64,000 bases of DNA, from positions 1 through 64,000 of the forward strand of contig NZ_JASCQP010000018.1 of assembly GCF_030010555.1 (NCBI RefSeq). Direction: 5' to 3'. Shown one piece after another: positions 4,009-50,601 of the stretch (positions within the stretch are counted from its first letter, which is position 1; each line of letters starts with the position of its first letter). The notes below the pieces were generated by a model. It was not told where the DNA came from and searched no databases. It saw nothing but the letters and a program-made list of their open reading frames with translations. The DNA is from Halomonas rhizosphaerae. GTDB taxonomy: Bacteria > Pseudomonadota > Gammaproteobacteria > Pseudomonadales > Halomonadaceae. Both the position numbers and the translations under genes were made by a program.

Positions 4009-6185
4009 CAGCTGGCCCTCCCGATCTGGCCCTTGCGCAGGGCTTCCACCACCTTGTCCCGGGGGCCATCGGCCACCACCTTGCCGGCATCGATGACCAG
4101 GATGCGATCGACCAGCGAGAGCAACGAGGTGCGGTGGGTGACGACGATCAGGGTCTTGCCCTGGCCGTAGGCCTTGAGGTTGGCCTTGAAGGCCTCCTCG
4201 CTGGCATGGTCCATGGAGCTGGTGGGCTCGTCGAGCAGCAGGATTCGCGGGTCATGGACGAGCGCCCGGGCGATGGCCACGGCCTGGCGCTGGCCGCCGG
4301 AGAGCATCTGGCCGCGCTCGCCCACCGGCAGGTCGACGCCCTGGGGATGCGCATTGACCAGGCTGTCGAGGCCGCTCAGCTTGATGGCGCGCAGCAGCGC
4401 CTCGTCATCGACCCCGTCGCTGCCGCCACCCGCGATGATGTTGTCGCGCAGCGAGCCGAAGAACAGGCTGACATCCTGGGGCACATAGCCGATATGGCGG
4501 CGCAGCTGCACGGGGTCGAACTGGCGGATGTCGACGTCGTCGATCATCACCGCCCCGGCGGTGGGCTGGTAGAGCCCCAGCAGCAGCTTGTTGAGGGTGG
4601 TCTTGCCGCAACCGACGCGGCCCAGTAGCGCCACCCTCTCGCCCGGCTCGATGGTCACCGAGATGTCGTGCAGGGCCTCGCGCTCCGCCTCCGGGTAGCG
4701 GAAGGAGAGCTTGTCGAAGTGGATCTCGCCACGCACCACCGGGCGGTCGATGAACGTCTTGCCGTCGGGACGCTCCACCGGCCGCTCCATCACCGCATTG
4801 AGCGACTGCAGTGCCGTGGAGGACTGGTGGTACTGCGCCAGCAGCGCCGCGGCCTGGCTGATCGGGGCCATGGCTCGCGACGACAGCAGGTAGGCGGCGA
4901 TCAGGCCGCCCTGGGTCAGGTTGCCCTCGATGATCTGGTAGACCCCGATGATGATCACGCACACGGCGACGCTGTGCTGGGCCCAGAGCGCCACGCTGGA
5001 GACCGAGGAGCTCACGAGGCGTAGCTGCGCGGAGGTGCGCGACAGGAAGGCCGAGGCCTTCTCCCAGGTTCCCTGGATGCGGCTCTCGGCCCGCAGCGTC
5101 TTGACCGTCTCCAGGTTCGAGAGCGATTCGACCAGGGTGGCGTTGCGCTGTGCCCCCACCCCCCAGGTGGTCTCGGAGAGCTCGTGGAGCTTGCCCTGGG
5201 CGGCCATGGCATAAAGCAGCACGAAGACGATACCCACCAGCACCGGGATCACCAGCGGCGGGCCGATCAGCGCGATGATCCCCGCGAACATCAGCACGAA
5301 GGGCAGGTCGACCAGGGCCACCACCGTGGCCGAGCCGATGAAGGCGCGTACCGACTCGAAGGACTGCAGGGTCGCCGCGAAGGAGCCGGTGGAGGCAGGA
5401 CGCGCCTCCATGCGCAGCCCCAGCACCCGGGCCATGATCGACGACGACAGCTTGACGTCGGCGCGGCTGGCCGCCAGGTCGACGAAGGCGTTGCGCATCA
5501 GGCGCAGGGCCAGGTCGAAGCAGAGCACGATGAAGATTCCCGCCGAGAGCACCCAGAGCGTCTCGGTGGCATGGTTCGGCACTACCCGGTCGTAGACGTT
5601 GAGCACGTACAGCGGCATCGCCACCGCGAAGAGGTTGATCACCACCGAGCCGGCGATGACGTCGCGATAGAGCTTGCGATTCTCGCGGATCACGCCCCAG
5701 AACCAGTGGCGCGAACGCTGCCGATTGACCTCGGGCCCGCGGGCATCGAAACGGAATCGGGGTCGCACGTAGATCGCCTGGCCGCTGTAGCTCGCCTCCA
5801 GGCCATCCAGGCTCACCTCGGTCTCGGCATCGCCCAGTTCGGGAAAGATCACCCGGGCGCGGCGCGCCCTGAGGTCGAGGGCCACCAGCACGCAAGCGCG
5901 TCCCGGCTCGAGCAGCAGGACGGCGGGGAACAGGGCGGGATTGAGCTGCACCAGTCGGCTCTGGATGATCCGGGCGGTGAGCCCGGCGCGGGACGCGGCG
6001 CGGGTAAAGACACCAGGCGTCAGGCGACCCTCCTCCAGGGGGAGGCCAGCGGTCAGCGCCTCGGCCGTGACCGCATGGCCATGGACCTGCGCGATGGTCT
6101 GCAGGCACTCGAGCAACTCGTCATGCACGGCCGACCGGGAGGGACCCGGTCCCGGGTCCAGATCTTCTTTCTGCGACACAACCAC
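4008..6185 (-). CDS. lapB: Type I secretion ABC permease/ATPase (LapB-like)
   Basis: 725-aa inner-membrane exporter powering adhesin secretion. Domains are an N-terminal C39-like domain (about 20-145), six-helix ABC membrane domain (about 165-450) and nucleotide-binding domain (about 485-715). Walker A GRVGCGKTT is at 522-530, signature LSGGQ at 628-632 and Walker B ILLLDEP at 648-654. The C39 domain has no Cys in the catalytic position (the helix reads LLECLQTIAQVHGH), so it is a non-proteolytic C39-like domain, as in RTX/LapA exporters. The start is GTG at 6185; no in-frame ATG suits better. Two tandem hairpins lie just upstream, between tolC and this gene. Confidence 0.93.
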   Translation of the reverse strand: MVVSQKEDLDPGPGPSRSAVHDELLECLQTIAQVHGHAVTAEALTAGLPLEEGRLTPGVFTRAASRAGLTARIIQSRLVQLNPALFPAVLLLEPGRACVLVALDLRARRARVIFPELGDAETEVSLDGLEASYSGQAIYVRPRFRFDARGPEVNRQRSRHWFWGVIRENRKLYRDVIAGSVVINLFAVAMPLYVLNVYDRVVPNHATETLWVLSAGIFIVLCFDLALRLMRNAFVDLAASRADVKLSSSIMARVLGLRMEARPASTGSFAATLQSFESVRAFIGSATVVALVDLPFVLMFAGIIALIGPPLVIPVLVGIVFVLLYAMAAQGKLHELSETTWGVGAQRNATLVESLSNLETVKTLRAESRIQGTWEKASAFLSRTSAQLRLVSSSVSSVALWAQHSVAVCVIIIGVYQIIEGNLTQGGLIAAYLLSSRAMAPISQAAALLAQYHQSSTALQSLNAVMERPVERPDGKTFIDRPVVRGEIHFDKLSFRYPEAEREALHDISVTIEPGERVALLGRVGCGKTTLNKLLLGLYQPTAGAVMIDDVDIRQFDPVQLRRHIGYVPQDVSLFFGSLRDNIIAGGGSDGVDDEALLRAIKLSGLDSLVNAHPQGVDLPVGERGQMLSGGQRQAVAIARALVHDPRILLLDEPTSSMDHASEEAFKANLKAYGQGKTLIVVTHRTSLLSLVDRILVIDAGKVVADGPRDKVVEALRKGQIGRAS

Positions 6186-6199
6186 CTCGAGAATCGATA

Positions 6200-6254
6200 C
6201 GCCCCGCCGAGGTCACGGCGGGGCGAGGTATACCGGCAGGTCGCGCCTGCCGGT
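6200..6254 (-). other. Two tandem perfect hairpins between tolC-like gene and lapB
   Basis: Hairpin 1 is at 6200-6225: CGCCCCGCCG pairs with CGGCGGGGCG over a 6-nt loop. Hairpin 2 is at 6232-6254: ACCGGCAGG pairs with CCTGCCGGT over a 5-nt loop. Neither is followed by a T-run on the minus strand, so they are not classic terminators. They could set a lower lapB-to-tolC expression ratio by attenuation or RNA processing. Hairpin 1 ends only 15 nt from the GTG start of lapB, so it could also affect initiation. Confidence 0.6.
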
Positions 6255-6268
6255 GTCCGGCATCATCG

Positions 6269-6335
6269 TCAGCCGCTCACCGCATAGCTTCCGTCGTAGC
6301 CCATGGTCTCGAGCCGCTGGCGCAGGGTCCGCATC
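6269..6335 (-). other. Out-of-frame C-terminus of the SPOR-like domain
   Basis: Directly after the tolC-like stop, the frame starting at the ATG that overlaps that stop (TGATG) encodes MRTLRQRLETMGYDGSYAVS and one more residue before TGA at 6271-6269. This is the expected final helix and strand of a SPOR domain (arginine/leucine helix, then GYDGSYAV). Joining it to GPIDTL of the upstream frame would restore a normal domain end. A one-base indel near 6334-6340, or a sequencing/assembly error, explains this best. Confidence 0.6.
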
Positions 6336-8496
6336 AGCTCAGGGTGTCGATCGGGCCGAGCTGGACGCGGTGCAGGGCCCCGGCGGAGCTGAGCCTGACC
6401 GGCAGGTCGAGCTCGCTGCCCAGGCGCTCGCCCAGGCCGCTGGCCCGCGCCTCGCTCTCCAGTGCCGCGACCTGCAGGAAGGCCCCCTCATCACGCGCCA
6501 GGGTCGCCGGCTCGGCGATACGAGCGTCTACCTCGCCGTACAGTCCGGCCGGTGCAGCGCTCCAGGCGGCCAAGGCCATGTCGCTGCCCGGGACAACGGC
6601 TTCGTCGCCTGCGTCGAAGGCATGCCCGCTCAGGTCCAGGTTCTCGCCGACACGCTCCAGGGTCACCTCGACGCGACGGTTCTGGCGGCGCCCCTCCACC
6701 GAGGCATTGCTGGCCACCGGCTGGCGCGAGCCATAGCCGCGCGTCTCGACCAGCCCTCGGTCGACCCCCTGGCTCACCAGGTAGTCGGCCACGCTGTCGG
6801 CACGCGCGCGGGAGAGCGGTTCGTTGATGGCATCTGATCCCGTGATGTCGGCGTGCCCGGCGATGAACACCCGGGCGAGATTGTCCATGCCACGGATCTC
6901 GGCGGCCAGACCGTTGAGTTCGCCTTGAGCCTCCGCGGAGAGCTCAGCACTGTTGATCTCGAACAGGGCATCGGCCGAGAAGGTAACGTCCGGCGCCCGG
7001 GCCGGCGCCTCGATGCCGCCGGTGAAGTCGGCCAGGGTGAAGCCCTGGGGCCCCTGGGCCGGACAGATCACGTCCGGGTTGATCGCCACGCCGTCGCTGC
7101 CCAGTTCGGCCAGGGTCGGCAGGTCGTCGCGCCGCACCTCCAGCGTCTGCATCAGCTGCCCCATGGCGGCCAGGGTACGGGCATCCGCCAGCGCCGCGTC
7201 ATACTGGGCATTGGCGTAGGCACGGCTGGCCTCGAAGTACTCGTTCTCGCTGTCCAGGACATCGAGCAGGGTACGCTGGCCGATGTCGAACTGCTGCTGG
7301 TAGGCGCCCCGGACCCGGTCGATGGACTGGCGATGCTCGTTGAGGTACTGCAGCTGCTCGCGCAGACGCTGGGTATCGTTGTAGGCGATCTGGGTGGTCT
7401 GGCGCACATCGATGCAGGCCTTCTCGCGCAGATTGACGGCCTGCTCGACCCGGTCGCTGGCGGCGCGGAAGGAGGCCCGGTCACTGCCGCCGCGATAGAG
7501 GTTCATGCTGGCCACCAGCTCGATGCTGTGGCGATCCCGGTGCTCGCCATCGGCGATCACGTCATAGCTGCCGTCACTGTTCTCGTAGGTGCCGGTGCGG
7601 CCGCGCAGGTCGAGACGCGGCTGGAAGGCCGAGCGGGTACCGCGCTGCTCGGCGCGGGAGGCCTCGATGTTCTCGATGGCGGCATGGAACTCGGGATTGC
7701 CCTGGAACGCCAGGTCGAGTGCCCGACCGACATCCGCGGGCAGGCGGTCGTCCATCTGCGGGGCCGGGGCGAGGTTCTCCGCCGGCAGGTCGCCGACGAT
7801 GCGCTGGTAACGCGCCGTCACGTCGTGAAGGTTGGAGGCCTCCGTCATCAGGTTGGACTCGGCCAGCGCCAGGCGGCCGCTGATCTGTTCCAGGTCGACG
7901 CGACGCCCCGCCCCTGAGATCACGCGCTCCTCGATCTGGTTGAAGACGCGCAGGTGCTCACGGTAGTTGTCCTGGGCCAGGCGCACCAGTTCCCGATAGC
8001 GCTGCACGTCCATGTAGGCGCGCGTCGCCTCCAGGGCGACCTCCTCGCTGGCCCCCAGCAGCTCGTAGTAGCGCACCAGTTCGGCGCGATCGAGGCGTTC
8101 GACCTCGCTGGCCGTGGCGAAGCCGTCCCAGAGCATCTGGGTGATGGTCAATTCGGCGTAGCTGGTGTCGTAGCTGCCGCGAGTGTCGAGCTGACGATCC
8201 TCCACACCGATACCCGCCGCCACATCGACGCTGGGCAGGTAGTTGCCGCGCGCCACCCCGATGTCGTTGCCGGAGGCGCGAAAGCCGTTCCAGGCGGCCT
8301 GCACCTCTGGGTTGGTCGAGATCGCCTGCTGGACCACCTGGCGCAGGTCGGTACTCCCCGGGGTCGCCAGGCCTGCCGGCAACGACTGTGCCACGGCCGA
8401 GGCGAGTGGCAGCAGTGTCAGGGAGGACCCCACGGCCAGGGTACCGGCAAGGCGACGAACACGGGTGCTGCTCACTGGATCGGTAGTGCGTTTCAT
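6334..8496 (-). CDS. TolC-family outer-membrane channel fused to OmpA domain and SPOR-like tail
   Basis: 720 aa. Residues 1-36 contain a signal peptide (hydrophobic VGSSLTLLPLASAVAQS). About 40-470 is a TolC/OEP channel with two alpha-barrel repeats, which should be the outer-membrane exit of the adhesin secretion system (LapE role). About 505-615 is an OmpA-like peptidoglycan-binding domain (FEINSAELS, GHADITGSD, LSRARADSVADYL, RRVEVTLE). The last ~60 residues look like the start of a SPOR peptidoglycan-binding domain (FLQVAALES...HRVQLGPIDTL), which stops short. The missing SPOR C-terminus is readable in another frame immediately downstream, to 6269. The start ATG has an AAAGGGAA ribosome site 6 nt upstream. 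First gene of the export operon. Confidence 0.9.
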   Translation of the reverse strand: MKRTTDPVSSTRVRRLAGTLAVGSSLTLLPLASAVAQSLPAGLATPGSTDLRQVVQQAISTNPEVQAAWNGFRASGNDIGVARGNYLPSVDVAAGIGVEDRQLDTRGSYDTSYAELTITQMLWDGFATASEVERLDRAELVRYYELLGASEEVALEATRAYMDVQRYRELVRLAQDNYREHLRVFNQIEERVISGAGRRVDLEQISGRLALAESNLMTEASNLHDVTARYQRIVGDLPAENLAPAPQMDDRLPADVGRALDLAFQGNPEFHAAIENIEASRAEQRGTRSAFQPRLDLRGRTGTYENSDGSYDVIADGEHRDRHSIELVASMNLYRGGSDRASFRAASDRVEQAVNLREKACIDVRQTTQIAYNDTQRLREQLQYLNEHRQSIDRVRGAYQQQFDIGQRTLLDVLDSENEYFEASRAYANAQYDAALADARTLAAMGQLMQTLEVRRDDLPTLAELGSDGVAINPDVICPAQGPQGFTLADFTGGIEAPARAPDVTFSADALFEINSAELSAEAQGELNGLAAEIRGMDNLARVFIAGHADITGSDAINEPLSRARADSVADYLVSQGVDRGLVETRGYGSRQPVASNASVEGRRQNRRVEVTLERVGENLDLSGHAFDAGDEAVVPGSDMALAAWSAAPAGLYGEVDARIAEPATLARDEGAFLQVAALESEARASGLGERLGSELDLPVRLSSAGALHRVQLGPIDTLS

Positions 8497-34040: not shown

Positions 34041-34126
34041 GGCGGACAGGACGCCATCCCCTCTGATGCCCGGGTACGCGACGAGATTGCGTGCCCGGGC
34101 ATCTTTGGTTAAGTTGGCAGGACTTG

Positions 34127-34230
34127 TCGGGGAGCCCCGGCACGCTCATGGAGCCGTGCACGGGGGCTGAGATCGGTACGGCCGAACCCGTTGAACCTGA
34201 TCAGGTTGATGCCTGCGGAGGGAACAAGCG
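34127..34230 (+). promoter_or_regulatory. TPP (THI-element) riboswitch
   Basis: The conserved THI-box core is clear: GGGGGCTGAGATCGG (consensus GGCTGAGA), then CCCGTTGAACCTGATCAGGT (consensus ACCCGTGAACCTGATCCGGT) and TGCCTGCGGAGGGAACAAG (consensus ATACCAGCGTAGGGAA). The 5' strand GGGGAGCCCC and a variable hairpin GGCACGCTCATGGAGCCGTGC lie before it. It ends about 60 nt before thiO, so high thiamine pyrophosphate should repress thiO-thiS-thiG. No clear terminator follows, so control is probably translational. Confidence 0.93.
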
Positions 34231-34290
34231 CGTGTCATTCCTGCCCGCCCCCTGCCGTCATCCCCCCTGGTCAGCCATGCCTGCTGCTGG

Positions 34291-41307: not shown

Positions 41308-41357
41308 TTGGTGGAGCCTAGCGGGATCGAACCGCTGACCTCAACACTGCCAGTGTT
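41308..41357 (-). tRNA. 3' half of tRNA-Ala(GGC): prophage attachment-site remnant
   Basis: The minus strand carries anticodon stem-loop AACACTGGCAGTGTT (anticodon GGC), variable loop GAGGTC, T-arm AGCGGTTCGATCCCGCT, acceptor strand GGCTCCA and CCA. The 5' half is missing: upstream bases (TAGGGCAGGGCAGAGGT) do not form a D-arm or acceptor strand. This is the duplicated att core left at one phage end. By orientation, the complete tRNA should be rebuilt at the other end, beyond 64,000. It is a fragment, not a functional tRNA. Confidence 0.9.
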
Positions 41358-41510
41358 ACCTCTGCCCTGCCCTAACTCCATGCCCTCATTGATGTTTCAC
41401 CTCATAGAGGTGTCGATATATACAGCACATGCGACGACGGTGGTTCGCGGCGAGCCAGGGAGGTTTTACGAGGGAATCTTGCCCGCCATGTCGCCCCGCC
41501 CGACACCTCG

Positions 41511-42581
41511 CTAATCCGCATAGGCCAGATAGGTCACGACGATAATGATGCCCAGCACGATCAGCCAGGTCGGCCAGCCCTCGCTAACCTCCCAGCCGGC
41601 GCCGCTGGATTGCCGCTGAGCGACCGATGCCGTTTCGCGATTGACGTACGGAGAGTCCTGATGGCTGGGCCACTGCGCCATCGCCTGGATCACACCGAGG
41701 GTGGTCTGGCAGTCGGTCATTGCTCGGTGCGGGGTGCCGGTAACGCGCACGCCGGTCTGTCTCGCGGCATTGCCCAGCTTCTGCCAGCGCCCGCCGGGGC
41801 AATACCACTCGGCGTAGGCGTGCATCGCACAATCGAAAGTTACCCCGCGCGGCATCTCCACCCCATGCGCCTCGAGGGAATGGCGCAGCAGGCGCTCGTC
41901 GAACTCAGCGTTGTAGGTGACCACGCGCCGATCCTGGAGGATGGCCCGCAGGTGTATGGCCAGATCGGCCACAGTGGGGGCGCCGCGCAAGTGCTCACGG
42001 CTGATGCCGTGGATCTCATGGGCCTTCGGGCCGATGGGGGCAGAGGGCTTGACCAGTGTGTTGAGCAGCTCCCGGCCCTGCATGTCGATGATGGCCAGCT
42101 CGAGCACCTGGGCGTTCTCGCTGAGGCCGGTGGTCTCGGTGTCGAGGATCACGGTCTCGGGGTCGTCGAGCCACTCCTGTGCCAGCTGCTGCTCCGGCGT
42201 CGACAGGGGGCGGCTTTCGGCCTTCAGCTGCACCAGCTGGTCGGCCTGGCGGCGGGTTGTCTCAAGGGTAAGCTGCTCGCCGTCCTTGAACTGCATCTCC
42301 ACCAGATAGCGGGTCTTGCCGTAGAACGAGCCGACGATGCACAACACCAAGGCAACGATAAACCCGAGCGGGCCGAAGAGCGCGCCGAACAGGATACCCA
42401 GAAACAGCAGGCCGAGCAGAAAGGTGAACCAGGCGAAGCGTCGCTCCTTCTCCTGGCGGGTAGCAACACTGGCCAGTGCACCGGGAGGATAGAGGGCCCC
42501 GCGGCTGGCGTTGATGCGCACGCCTTGAGAGCCGACCTGGATCCTGCCGCGGGTACCGAATGAACCGCCGATGATGCGCAT
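41511..42581 (-). CDS. Membrane-anchored DEDDh 3'-5' exonuclease, prophage edge gene
   Basis: 356 aa. A short N-terminal domain is followed by two transmembrane helices at about 51-69 and 72-88 (WFTFLLGLLFLGILFGALFG, LGFIVALVLCIVGSFYG). A full DnaQ-type nuclease follows with D147, E149 (ILDTETTGL), D228 (TYNAEFDERLL), H285 and D290 (PHRAMTDCQ). A C-terminal transmembrane helix lies near 338-353. It is the leftmost phage gene, beside the attachment site, where phages usually carry accessory cargo. A role in superinfection exclusion or defence is plausible but unproven; alternatively it is a lysogenic-conversion gene. Similar chemistry occurs in the chromosomal exonuclease-sensor at 23.2 kb. 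Confidence 0.87.
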   Translation of the reverse strand: MRIIGGSFGTRGRIQVGSQGVRINASRGALYPPGALASVATRQEKERRFAWFTFLLGLLFLGILFGALFGPLGFIVALVLCIVGSFYGKTRYLVEMQFKDGEQLTLETTRRQADQLVQLKAESRPLSTPEQQLAQEWLDDPETVILDTETTGLSENAQVLELAIIDMQGRELLNTLVKPSAPIGPKAHEIHGISREHLRGAPTVADLAIHLRAILQDRRVVTYNAEFDERLLRHSLEAHGVEMPRGVTFDCAMHAYAEWYCPGGRWQKLGNAARQTGVRVTGTPHRAMTDCQTTLGVIQAMAQWPSHQDSPYVNRETASVAQRQSSGAGWEVSEGWPTWLIVLGIIIVVTYLAYAD

Positions 42582-42679
42582 GTTGCCTCCTGCTGCGATG
42601 TGACGTCCTTGTCAGCCCGCACGCTGGCGGGTTTAGGCTGTCAGCATAGCACCAGGCGAGATCGATAAAGAGAAAGCTC

Positions 42680-42982
42680 ATGGACGACCCCACCCGCTAC
42701 CGCCTCACCACCTGGCGCAAGCGCCTCGAGCGGCAGGGCTGGGTGAGCCTGCGCCGGAGACGGCCGCCGGGCAATCGGCTGGTTGAGTATCACGTGATCT
42801 GGCAGGGCCGGCTGATCAGCGGGCGGGTGCGTCTGAGTGAGCTGGATCGCGATGCGGGGTTCTGGCAACCGGGCTCGCCGGTGTACCTGCTGGAGCGGGG
42901 CCAGGATGTCGTGGAGGGAGTGTGGCGGGTGGCGAAGGATCAAGCGGCCGTCCCTGGCCAGATGGTGCGATCGATGCCCTGA
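42680..42982 (+). CDS. Hypothetical phage-edge protein
   Basis: 100 aa, basic, starting MDDPTRYRLTTWRKRLERQG; contains R-rich and W-rich stretches and no signal or membrane segment. Divergent from the exonuclease with a 98-bp gap holding both promoters. AGAAAG precedes the ATG weakly. Unknown function. Confidence 0.6.
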   Translation: MDDPTRYRLTTWRKRLERQGWVSLRRRRPPGNRLVEYHVIWQGRLISGRVRLSELDRDAGFWQPGSPVYLLERGQDVVEGVWRVAKDQAAVPGQMVRSMP

Positions 42983-43049
42983 CGCATGGAGGGACCTTGT
43001 CTGGCTGGGCTGTCATCATGGTGACCTTTCCTCAAGGGAGTTCCTCACC

Positions 43050-43280
43050 ATGTTGACGACTATCGGTCTTCTGCTGGATATGACAGGTGTCGCCCTGCTC
43101 TTCTTCTTCCCGCCGAGCTTGCCAGCGCACGAGAAGCCGGTGGGCAACCGGGTCACGACCTCGCCCGCGCTGGAAGCAGAGCGGGCGAGGCTCGCCGGTA
43201 AGCGCAAGACGTCCAACCGGATCGCACGGCTTGCGCTGGCCTTGCTCTTCATTGGCTTCGGGCTGCAGATCTTAGGGTAG
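43050..43280 (+). CDS. Small two-TM phage membrane protein
   Basis: 76 aa with transmembrane helices at about 3-22 (TTIGLLLDMTGVALLFFFPP) and 58-75 (IARLALALLFIGFGLQIL) and a charged loop between. Start ATG 43050 has AAGGGAG upstream. With the flanking membrane exonuclease it makes a small membrane-associated accessory cluster at the phage end. Function unknown. Confidence 0.65.
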   Translation: MLTTIGLLLDMTGVALLFFFPPSLPAHEKPVGNRVTTSPALEAERARLAGKRKTSNRIARLALALLFIGFGLQILG

Positions 43281-48819: not shown

Positions 48820-50601
48820 CTATCGACTGCCGGCGACGACGCCAGCCAGGGTATCGGCCAGCCACTTCTCGGCGGCTTCCGCGTTCTCGGTGAAGACGTC
48901 GAGATTGCCCGCCTCGCTCTTCAGCGTCAGGGTGCCCAGCTGCTTGATGCCGCCCCCGCCACTCGCTCGGCCGGATACCTGGCTGGCCGCCTGGCTTACC
49001 TTTTCGGCGCCCAGGTCGGTGCTCCAGCGGATGGTGCTGGTGCCATTGGCCGCCTGCTCGGCAGTGGGCACCACACCGCCCGCCGCATCCTCGCCGTTGG
49101 CGGGCTGGATGCTGTTCCATGCCGCCTTGGCCGCCACGCTTGCGCCATCCACGAAGGCCTGGGCGGCAGCCTCGAGCCCGGCCTGCAGGTTCTGGGCGCT
49201 CCTGAAGTCGGCGACCTGCTGCTCGAGGGCGGCATCGAGCTCGCGCTGCAGGGTGGGCAGGGTGTTGCCCCAGGCGTCGCGGATCTGCCCCGAGGCATCG
49301 ATGCTAGAGCCCTCCCCGGCACGATCGAGGATGTCCTCTACCTCGTCGTTCGCCGCCGGACTGAAGCCGTCCAGGGCATCGGCTGCACCATCGGCGGCCT
49401 GTCCTACCCGCGCCAGGCCGGTGGAAGCCAGTTCCATGCCCTCGCCGATGAAGACCTCCATCATCGACCGGCCATCGCCGGGGTCGGCATCGCCGGCACC
49501 ACGATCACCGAACGAGATGGCCATGCCCTCGGCACGTTGCTTTATCTGTGCATCGATGTCGTCGAGGGCTGCTTTCAGCTCGGCTTCGCTGTGGTACTTG
49601 ATGATCCCTTCAGGTCCGAATAGGCGGACTCGCTCACTGGGGTTCTCCAGGGCGCTCATGATCCGGGCGCGCTGTTCTTCCAGCTCCAGCCCACCGATAC
49701 CGACGGCAATCACCCCCAGCTCGGTGCCAAGATTCTGAGCGAAGCTGATGGTGGACTGGAGGGCCTCGATCGCCCACTCCATGGAGGTGACGATGGCCTC
49801 GCCCAGGGCCTGGGCGTTCTTGAGCGTTTCGGGATCGCTGAGCAGCTCCACCATGTCCTCGATGGCGGGCAAGGCGCCCAGCACCATCTCGTTCTTCATG
49901 CCGGTGGCAGCGCCGGTCAGCTCGTCCATGCCGTCCTTGATGGCAATGAGCTGCTGCATCTCCATATCGGAGAAGACGTTGCCGGTGCGCTCGGCCTCGT
50001 CGCCCAGCCGGCGCATCTCCTTGCCGCCATCAGCCAGAAGCGGAATCAGCGCCGTGGCATCGGAGGCGATCGCCTCCATGTAGAAGGTCATGTCCTTCTG
50101 GCTGAGCCCCGCCGCCTCCAGGCTGGCGACGTAGAGCTGCAGCGCATCGGGGCCGGAGAGCCGCGCGAACTCATCGGCCGTAACCCCCACCTTGGGGGCG
50201 ATGTTCTCGAAGAAGTCGGCCATCGGCCCGCCACCGGTGGCCAGGAAGTCGCCGATGCGGTCGTTGGTGTCCTTGAGGATGTCGGCGAGCTTTTCCTGGT
50301 CGATGCCGAACCGGGAGGAGCCGTAGGCCAGGCGCTGGAAACTCTGGGTGCTGGTGTCGGAGATCTGCGCGAAGCGCTCCAGCTCCCGTGCGCCGTTCAC
50401 GGTCTGCACCACCATGGCGGAGAAGGCGCCGGCAGCAATGGTGCCCAGGCCGGCCATGGCCGTGCCCACGCGCTTGAGGTCGCGCTCGACACCCTTGCGC
50501 CACTTCTGGGCGCTGCGCTGGCTCTTGGTCATGCCCTGCACGAAGCTGCCGGTCTTGGCGACCAGGTCCAGCGTCAGCGTGCCCAGTGACTTCGTGCTCA
50601 T
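48820..50601 (-). CDS. Phage tail tape-measure protein
   Basis: 593 aa. N-terminal MSTKSLGTLTLDLVAKTGSF is the standard start of lambda-family tape-measure proteins (GTLTLDLVAKTGSFVQGM). A Gly/Ala-rich hydrophobic segment (AMAGLGTIAAGAFSAMV, about 47-63) and long helical stretches follow. The length is short for a tape measure (about 85-90 nm tail by the usual 1.5 A per residue rule). Starts 4 nt after the gpGT stop. Confidence 0.88.
   Translation of the reverse strand: MSTKSLGTLTLDLVAKTGSFVQGMTKSQRSAQKWRKGVERDLKRVGTAMAGLGTIAAGAFSAMVVQTVNGARELERFAQISDTSTQSFQRLAYGSSRFGIDQEKLADILKDTNDRIGDFLATGGGPMADFFENIAPKVGVTADEFARLSGPDALQLYVASLEAAGLSQKDMTFYMEAIASDATALIPLLADGGKEMRRLGDEAERTGNVFSDMEMQQLIAIKDGMDELTGAATGMKNEMVLGALPAIEDMVELLSDPETLKNAQALGEAIVTSMEWAIEALQSTISFAQNLGTELGVIAVGIGGLELEEQRARIMSALENPSERVRLFGPEGIIKYHSEAELKAALDDIDAQIKQRAEGMAISFGDRGAGDADPGDGRSMMEVFIGEGMELASTGLARVGQAADGAADALDGFSPAANDEVEDILDRAGEGSSIDASGQIRDAWGNTLPTLQRELDAALEQQVADFRSAQNLQAGLEAAAQAFVDGASVAAKAAWNSIQPANGEDAAGGVVPTAEQAANGTSTIRWSTDLGAEKVSQAASQVSGRASGGGGIKQLGTLTLKSEAGNLDVFTENAEAAEKWLADTLAGVVAGSR

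What the first reader, a model, noticed from the sequence alone, without database searches (positions are those of the whole stretch)
41511..43280. Membrane-anchored DEDDh exonuclease with two small genes at the phage edge
A three-helix-anchored nuclease with all five catalytic residues lies in the classic cargo position next to the attachment site, beside a divergent basic protein and a small two-helix membrane protein. A candidate superinfection-exclusion or defence system acting on incoming DNA at the membrane.
Basis: inference. Interest (0 to 1): 0.75.

Follow-up and report, generated by a model that had tools for sequence, protein, structure and literature searches.

The report
Prophage membrane-anchored DNA-chewing exonuclease fusion
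A dormant virus in a salt-loving bacterium carries a gene that fuses a small membrane protein, which other phages keep next to their DNA-injection gene, to a DNA-degrading enzyme; it probably protects the host by attacking the DNA of rival viruses as it enters the cell.

Summary
In detail: a 356-aa DEDDh exonuclease with three predicted membrane helices lies at the attR edge of a complete-looking 37-kb Halomonas prophage, beside a divergent basic gene (B) and a two-helix gene (C). Residues 1-122 belong to a separate phage protein family (PH-like model, inserted helix hairpin). In 19 of 26 viral contigs its free-standing members lie just upstream of the tape measure gene, the position of HK97 gp15. 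Tail-module copies look like morons: a terminator follows 14 of 14, an extended -10 precedes 11 of 14 (neighbouring ORFs 18 and 4 of 156; patterns chosen after reading the sequences). The window gene joins this domain to a phage-type exonuclease plus a C-terminal helix. A 76%-identical fusion under purifying selection occurs in H. shengliensis; a free-standing form sits at the apparent same edge of another contig. Best reading: superinfection exclusion by an exonuclease held where siphophage DNA enters. It would work like SNIPE but lacks SNIPE's domains. No activity is shown; only two fusions were found. The three genes are not a conserved system; B accompanies varying neighbours.

The parts
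41511..42581 (-). Fusion gene, 356 aa: N-terminal membrane domain + DEDDh exonuclease + C-terminal helix
42216..42581 (-). N-terminal domain (residues 1-122): PH-like model with inserted helix hairpin; relative of a free-standing phage protein found upstream of tape measure genes
41646..42206 (-). Exonuclease part (residues 126-312), D147 E149 D228 H285 D290
41514..41585 (-). C-terminal hydrophobic helix (residues 333-356)
   Evidence: also predicted in the H. shengliensis orthologue
42643..42651 (-). Extended -10-like element TGCTATGCT, ending 61 bp before the fusion gene; TGCTAYGCT also upstream of three other edge copies (weak evidence alone)
42680..42982 (+). Gene B, 100 aa basic protein, recurrent in Halomonas beside differing neighbours, several at prophage edges
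43050..43280 (+). Gene C, 76 aa, two hydrophobic segments; one relative found, in G454
41310..41369 (.). attR: 3' part of tRNA-Ala, repeated at contig position 78289-78346
48820..50601 (-). Tape measure gene of the prophage; the slot before it holds no free-standing copy of the N-terminal domain

Best explanation
The gene is a lysogeny-expressed cargo gene (moron) that makes an inner-membrane exonuclease for superinfection exclusion. Shown from sequence: its N-terminal 122 residues are a phage membrane domain whose free-standing relatives mostly lie next to tape measure genes and carry their own terminator-like and promoter-like elements; this domain is fused to a DEDDh exonuclease with an intact active-site motif set and to a C-terminal helix. 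[quoted passage not shown] The 3'-5' exonuclease then attacks the leading free 3' end of the entering linear genome before it can circularise. The circular chromosome with the integrated prophage has no ends and is spared.
For: (1) Domain origin: the N-terminal domain aligns along its length with free-standing phage proteins of about 120-126 aa. (2) Their location: 19 of 26 distinct viral contigs have a large ORF downstream within 2.5 kb. I gave 15 of those 19, plus the G021 copy's neighbour, to a family scan and 16 of 16 match a tape measure family; the other four begin with the same 40 residues as scanned ones. (3) Moron anatomy of 14 non-redundant tail-module copies: terminator after 14 of 14, against 18 of 156 other forward ORFs and 0.5% of shuffles; extended -10 before 11 of 14, against 4 of 156 and 5.4%. 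Held out of that test, the G021 slot copy also has a terminator but no -10. (4) HK97 gp15, an exclusion protein (PMC10883804, passages), has the same slot and an annotated putative terminator. (5) Edge copies in 4 of 4 loci carry TGCTAYGCT upstream. (6) Modular swap: a 120-aa free-standing copy, 77% identical, lies behind the tail genes in L067, where H. shengliensis has the fusion. (7) One copy per genome: window and H. shengliensis have only the edge fusion, G021 only the slot copy. (8) Active-site residues kept; dN/dS 0.16 in the exonuclease domain. (9) Precedent: SNIPE, a membrane nuclease that associates with tape measure protein and cuts DNA during injection (PMC13190303; abstract, discussion section, passages).
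Against: No activity has been shown for either domain. Only two fusions were found, both in Halomonas. The terminator and -10 patterns were defined after I had read the same sequences, the 14 loci fall into about six lineages judged by eye, and the 156 controls are mechanically tiled ORFs. Outside the tail slot the terminator pattern follows only L067 of six copies: not L083, G444, G650, H. shengliensis or the window gene. The edge -10-like element ends 59-106 bp upstream, farther than in slot copies, and represents two families of upstream sequence at most; it occurs twice in the window, and 8 of 100 shuffles have at least two. The window gene is not itself in the tape measure slot. I know of no tested member of the slot family: no match in 50,697 phage records for three queries and no PHROG below E=0.05. 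No convincing similarity to gp15, so that analogy rests on position and anatomy. Copies in G444 and G650 have no tail genes in the stretch read; L083's context is unclear. PADLOC finds only generic exonuclease models. Related phage exonucleases lie in early or partition regions (by eye).
Confidence: 0.5

Rival explanations
1. The N-terminal domain alone is the exclusion factor (a plug on tape measure proteins, like gp15) and the exonuclease is an accessory or a chance fusion of little consequence.
For: Free-standing copies without nuclease are the rule: of 26 viral contigs only L035 carries the fusion. A free-standing copy fills the corresponding edge position in L067.
Against: The exonuclease domain is the best-conserved large part (87% identity, dN/dS 0.16 against 0.35 for the N-terminal domain), so it appears to be under selection, and the active-site residues are kept.
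Confidence: 0.15
2. A membrane-tethered replication or recombination exonuclease of the prophage's own lytic cycle.
For: The exonuclease domain is related to small exonucleases of temperate phages such as VP882 and MAR, annotated 'DNA polymerase exonuclease subunit' in some records. The fusion gene runs in the late-gene direction.
Against: It lies at the far edge behind the tail genes, not in the O/P-like replication module, and carries a membrane domain related to moron-like genes.
Confidence: 0.15
3. A tail-associated or lytic-phase protein: the N-terminal domain helps tape measure assembly or DNA ejection, and the nuclease trims DNA in that setting.
For: The slot next to the tape measure gene is strikingly constant.
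Against: Tail-module copies have their own terminator in 14 of 14 and a promoter-like element in 11 of 14, which would uncouple them from the late operon. The window and H. shengliensis phages lack a slot copy.
Confidence: 0.1
4. A cargo gene that degrades free DNA at the membrane for another end, such as blocking conjugation or transformation, or scavenging nucleotides.
For: Any incoming DNA with an end would be a substrate. Another member of the exonuclease family with one N-terminal helix (L188) lies beside an integrase, a RES-domain protein and HNH genes.
Against: The tape measure association of the N-terminal family points to phage entry.
Confidence: 0.1

Closest known systems
SNIPE (DUF4041 + GIY-YIG membrane nuclease; PMC13190303)
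   Same: Nuclease with a membrane anchor; proposed to act on DNA during injection; proposed link to tape measure proteins; some SNIPE homologues carry N-terminal PH-like domains (passages).
   Different: No DUF4041 and no GIY-YIG match here; the nuclease is a DEDDh exonuclease, which needs an end; the membrane part belongs to a phage family of moron-like genes; the gene lies at a prophage edge; function untested.
HK97 gp15 superinfection exclusion moron
   Same: Free-standing relatives of the N-terminal domain occupy the same slot between tail chaperone and tape measure gene, with a terminator; small predicted membrane protein.
   Different: No convincing sequence similarity; gp15 is 62 aa and has no nuclease; the window gene is at the phage edge.
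Phage DnaQ-like exonucleases (phrog_192; VP882, MAR, 186, N15)
   Same: Homologous exonuclease domain: tblastn identity 47, 43, 40 and 33%; active-site residues aligned for MAR, VP882 and a P. aeruginosa phage-plasmid.
   Different: Of 79 viral relatives read (from the best 80 of 237 kept), 70 are 184-290 aa long, and only the H. shengliensis copy and L188 have a strong hydrophobic segment before the catalytic motif.
Mammalian TREX1
   Same: Same nuclease fold (Foldseek match to mouse TREX1); a DEDDh 3'-5' DNA exonuclease held in a membrane by a C-terminal helix (recalled).
   Different: No evidence of descent beyond the superfamily; the window protein adds an N-terminal membrane domain.
Pfam DUF6232 (PF19744)
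   Same: Weak profile match to residues 15-117, E=5.7e-5 with the domain alone.
   Different: 24.0 bits against a cut-off of 27.4; the free-standing G021 relative gives no match.

Membership tests
DEDDh exonuclease (RNase_T, PF00929) | Profile match and the five active-site residues | tested here: met
   E=5.5e-20, 73 bits against cut-off 24; D147 E149 D228 H285 D290
SNIPE | GIY-YIG nuclease domain | tested here: not met
   No GIY-YIG family among Pfam matches up to E=1
SNIPE | DUF4041 domain | tested here: not met
   Not among Pfam matches up to E=1
SNIPE | Inner-membrane anchor with cytoplasmic nuclease | tested here: inconclusive
   Membrane helices predicted; orientation inferred from positive residues beside the hairpin, not measured
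SNIPE | Association with tape measure protein and cleavage during injection | not testable with these tools
   Needs crosslinking and injection assays
HK97 gp15-type exclusion moron | Own terminator, placed between tail chaperone and tape measure gene | tested here: not met
   Not met by the window gene, which lies at the att edge with no terminator within 80 bp; met by most free-standing relatives
HK97 gp15-type exclusion moron | Sequence homology to gp15 | tested here: inconclusive
   BLASTP E=0.14 in a single comparison; hhalign probability 14% over 24 hydrophobic columns
HK97 gp15-type exclusion moron | Blocks DNA injection by other phages | not testable with these tools
   Needs plaque and injection assays
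DUF6232 | Score above Pfam's gathering cut-off | tested here: not met
   24.0 against 27.4 bits
Known defence system in PADLOC | Specific match to a system model | tested here: not met
   Only DEDDh and PDC-S48 models match, over the exonuclease region
PH-like fold (N-terminal domain) | Structural match of the barrel and C-terminal helix | tested here: inconclusive
   VIA best Z 9.4, rmsd 2.3, 77 aligned (Rtt106), top rows mostly PH/PTB/FERM-type (the tool warns that best Z 7-8 is usual without a clear match); Foldseek none at E 0.001 or below

The most novel reading that the evidence does not exclude
A prophage exclusion enzyme that tells invader from self by place and by DNA ends: a domain from tape-measure-slot morons holds a 3'-5' exonuclease at the siphophage entry channel, where it eats the leading end of the incoming linear genome. 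The circular chromosome has no ends to attack. The free-standing domain would be an undescribed family of tape-measure-directed exclusion proteins.
Probability: 0.3. Interest if true: 0.82.

Novelty: new variant of a known kind. Interest (0 to 1): 0.62.

Why it matters
It offers a testable second case of nuclease defence at the point of DNA entry, built from different parts than SNIPE. It also points to a phage membrane protein family with no match among 50,697 named phage records, whose position and moron-like control elements suggest exclusion through the tape measure protein. If right, the self/non-self rule (location plus free ends) would be new, and gene B might serve as an anchor for finding further cargo genes in Halomonas prophages.

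Tried and rejected
Three-gene system: rejected, because gene order and content differ between phages.

Widespread membrane form in plasmid exonucleases: of 3831 plasmid records with a match, 30 were listed. Some align from residue 76-84 on, but the two such proteins I read in full show no long hydrophobic N-terminal stretch by eye.

C-terminal helix as an old part of the exonuclease: relatives of about 285 aa have a hydrophobic stretch near residue 242-265, but it lies inside a further stretch that ends in charged residues, so I claim neither homology nor a membrane helix there.

phrog_192 as a specific marker: rejected, since it matches 271 of 274 Gammaproteobacteria genomes at E 1e-20 and 10 of 14 control genomes.

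Known defence genes next to B: of ten neighbouring proteins that I picked, PADLOC gave one weak match, E=0.0039. Pfam gave matches above its cut-off for five of ten: DUF6731, HSDR_N, HicB-like antitoxin, SRAP, and Exo_endo_phos with HHH.

Sigma-70 scan: found no promoter before the fusion gene; the extended -10 came from comparing upstream regions by eye. Fold search of the N-terminal domain in the viral library gave nothing at E 0.001 or below. Gene C: no relatives in viral contigs.

Rows dropped: I used 14 of 26 viral loci, leaving out nine near-identical ones and three not in a tail slot (L035, L067, L083). One of the 14, L050, has no tape measure ORF in its short contig. applies the same patterns to the nine left out (terminator 9 of 9, -10 in 7 of 9) and to seven other copies including H. 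shengliensis (the source of L035) and the window (terminator 2 of 7, -10 at 15-60 bp 0 of 7). In one search I fetched 11 regions from 10 of the 28 genomes with a B match. In one search, 79 of 80 loci had a readable motif (L205 not), and one search had kept the best 80 of 237.

Full report
WHAT IS THERE. Window 41511-42581 (-) encodes a 356-aa protein with a Pfam RNase_T exonuclease domain at residues 144-296, E=5.5e-20. The DEDDh residues D147, E149, D228, H285 and D290 are present. Hydrophobic stretches lie at 47-90 and 332-356. Gene B (42680-42982, +, net charge +8) and gene C (43050-43280, +, two hydrophobic segments) are as described. The tRNA-Ala 3' segment at 41310-41369 recurs at contig position 78289-78346 inside an intact tRNA-Ala(GGC), so the prophage spans about 37 kb. 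Its integrase is at the other end (contig 76436-77752). Repressor, O/P-like replication proteins, terminase, portal, protease, major head, major tail and tail chaperone proteins match PHROGs; the tape measure gene is at 48820-50601.

THE FUSION AND ITS ORTHOLOGUE. A scan of genome contigs found one close relative, in Halomonas shengliensis. It has the same architecture, including a C-terminal hydrophobic helix, and the same attachment sequence beyond it. Identity is 76%; dN/dS (Nei-Gojobori) is 0.29 overall, 0.16 in the exonuclease domain, 0.35 in the N-terminal domain and 0.67 in the C-terminal part.

THE N-TERMINAL DOMAIN IS A PHAGE PROTEIN FAMILY. The first hint was a 125-aa protein in the genome G021, 41% identical to the window's domain, lying between the tail chaperone and the tape measure gene. 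Two scans of viral contigs gave 26 distinct contigs (several were fetched twice under different ids). All but L035 encode free-standing ORFs of 120-161 aa containing M(K/R)I(I/V)GGSFG. In 19 of 26 a large ORF follows within 2.5 kb; in L054 another ORF comes between, and in four related contigs the gap is about 460 bp. The other seven are L050, L056, L060 and L066 (no ORF of 300 aa or more completed before the contig or locus ends), L083 (unclear context), and the edge copies L035 and L067. I submitted 15 of the 19 tape measure candidates plus that of G021 to PHROGs: 16 of 16 match a tape measure family. No match was found in 50,697 named phage records for three different queries, and no PHROG below E=0.05. 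In sampled genomes the domain is rare: 4 of 90 in the genus, 2 of 369 in the class (one a weak, partial hit), 2 of 398 in the phylum, each count including the window's own genome.

THE TAIL-MODULE COPIES ARE BUILT LIKE MORONS. In 14 non-redundant loci an intrinsic terminator follows the gene in 14 of 14, against 18 of 156 other forward ORFs in the same loci and 0.5% of shuffles. An extended -10 (TGnTAnnnT) lies 15-60 bp upstream in 11 of 14, against 4 of 156 and 5.4%. Three cautions: I had read these sequences before fixing the patterns; the loci represent about six lineages by eye; the controls are mechanically tiled ORFs. Applied afterwards to copies left out of the test, the terminator pattern holds for the G021 slot copy and for L067, but not for L083, G444, G650, H. 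shengliensis or the window gene, and the 15-60 bp -10 for none of these seven. So the moron signature belongs to the tail-slot form. HK97 gp15, an exclusion protein predicted to be in the inner membrane, occupies the same slot with an annotated putative terminator ([quoted passage not shown] The two are not demonstrably homologous.

SHAPE. AlphaFold2 on the N-terminal domain (20 sequences) gives pLDDT 81.2. The full-length model (37 sequences) gives 88.8, with the N-terminal domain mostly above 90 and residues 314-335 under 50. The domain is a set of beta strands interrupted by a helix hairpin (51-69, 71-84), followed by two more strands and a helix. VIA places PH, PTB and FERM-type domains at the top (Z 9.4, rmsd 2.3, 77 residues for Rtt106), only a little above what the tool calls usual; Foldseek is weak. 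I read it as a PH-like fold with an inserted membrane hairpin, not proven. The nuclease matches Pol III epsilon, ExoX and TREX1 among others.

MODULARITY. Three arrangements occur. Window and H. shengliensis: fusion at the att edge, no copy in the tape measure slot. G021: slot copy, B at the end of the tail genes, no edge fusion. L067: a free-standing copy 77% identical to the window's domain behind a last tail gene like that of H. shengliensis (by eye), followed by a strong terminator and, by eye, a tRNA-like sequence. G444 holds a free-standing copy with a match to the first 29 residues of B diverging from it, as B does in the window. All four edge copies have TGCTAYGCT upstream, at 61, 104, 106 and 59 bp; the upstream sequences pair into two families, so this is two independent cases at most. 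In the window the 9-mer occurs twice, and 8 of 100 shuffles have as many, so alone it is weak evidence.

THE EXONUCLEASE PART. Named relatives are small temperate-phage exonucleases such as those of VP882 and MAR, 46 and 45% identical in the alignment, which lie near partition genes. Of 79 viral relatives with a readable motif (best 80 of 237 kept), only the H. shengliensis copy (L157) and L188 have a strong hydrophobic segment before the catalytic motif. L188 is a separate case: one N-terminal helix, with an integrase, a RES-domain protein and two HNH genes around it.

GENES B AND C. B has matches in 28 of 90 Halomonas genomes (the weakest, near 30% identity, may be another family). In the 11 regions I fetched (10 genomes) it has differing neighbours. 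Of ten that I scanned, Pfam recognised a DUF6731 protein, an HSDR_N nuclease, a SRAP protein, an Exo_endo_phos/HHH protein and a HicB-like protein; several others are small hydrophobic proteins by eye, and some regions hold tail genes by eye, a tRNA-Leu or a tmRNA. This resembles the defence hotspots beside conserved anchor genes described for other prophages (PMC9122126, passages), but PADLOC recognised none of the ten with confidence. C has one relative, in G454, in a locus with B and the HSDR_N nuclease.

MECHANISM. Shown: architecture, conservation, att-edge position, and moron-like anatomy of the tail-module family. Inferred: lysogenic expression, inner-membrane topology with a cytoplasmic nuclease, targeting to the tape measure channel, and attack on the leading 3' end. 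SNIPE shows that a membrane nuclease can cut DNA during injection and associates with tape measure protein (PMC13190303: abstract, discussion section, passages). The window protein lacks SNIPE's two defining domains, so it would work like SNIPE without being one.

NOVELTY. Searches of the held papers listed no title or abstract start that describes this fusion or the free-standing family: DUF6232 (none held), HK97 gp15 with tape measure (15 of 18 listed), exclusion and tape measure (10 of 14), DEDDh with prophage and anti-phage (15 of 67), exclusion with nuclease (15 of 27), PH with tape measure (8 of 166), membrane-anchored exonuclease with exclusion (3 of 3). I saw listings, and passages of PMC13190303, PMC10883804, PMC9122126 and PMC11436027. 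Papers of subscription journals are mostly not held.

VERDICT. Observation confirmed, interpretation partly supported: probably an exclusion nuclease, with a traceable membrane domain, but untested and found in two phages only.

Noticed in passing
window 42680-42982 (gene B) and L146-L156: B matches occur in 28 of 90 Halomonas genomes; in the 11 regions read it has differing neighbours, several at prophage edges, so it could be used as an anchor to find new cargo or defence genes.
   Followed up: partly
L188:3788-4534: An independent DEDDh exonuclease with one N-terminal hydrophobic helix, with an integrase, a RES-domain protein and HNH genes around it in a viral contig.
   Followed up: partly
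L149 (G454) 4598-6823: A relative of gene C, an HSDR_N nuclease and B lie together, beside what look like tail genes.
   Followed up: no
L147:4700-5599 and L148:4866-5831: DUF6731-type proteins (profile match for L147; L148 similar by eye) next to B, in loci with a tmRNA and a tRNA-Leu.
   Followed up: no
window 34118-34240: TPP riboswitch (72.6 bits) in the chromosomal part of the window.
   Followed up: no
L158, L161-L168, L179, L190: A subgroup of phage exonucleases of about 285 aa carries a similar C-terminal extra stretch with a hydrophobic segment, in several cases directly before a DNA adenine methylase-like gene (by eye).
   Followed up: no
G650:C32:142789-143145 (L097): A free-standing copy of the N-terminal domain in another family of the order, without tail genes in the short stretch read.
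   Followed up: no
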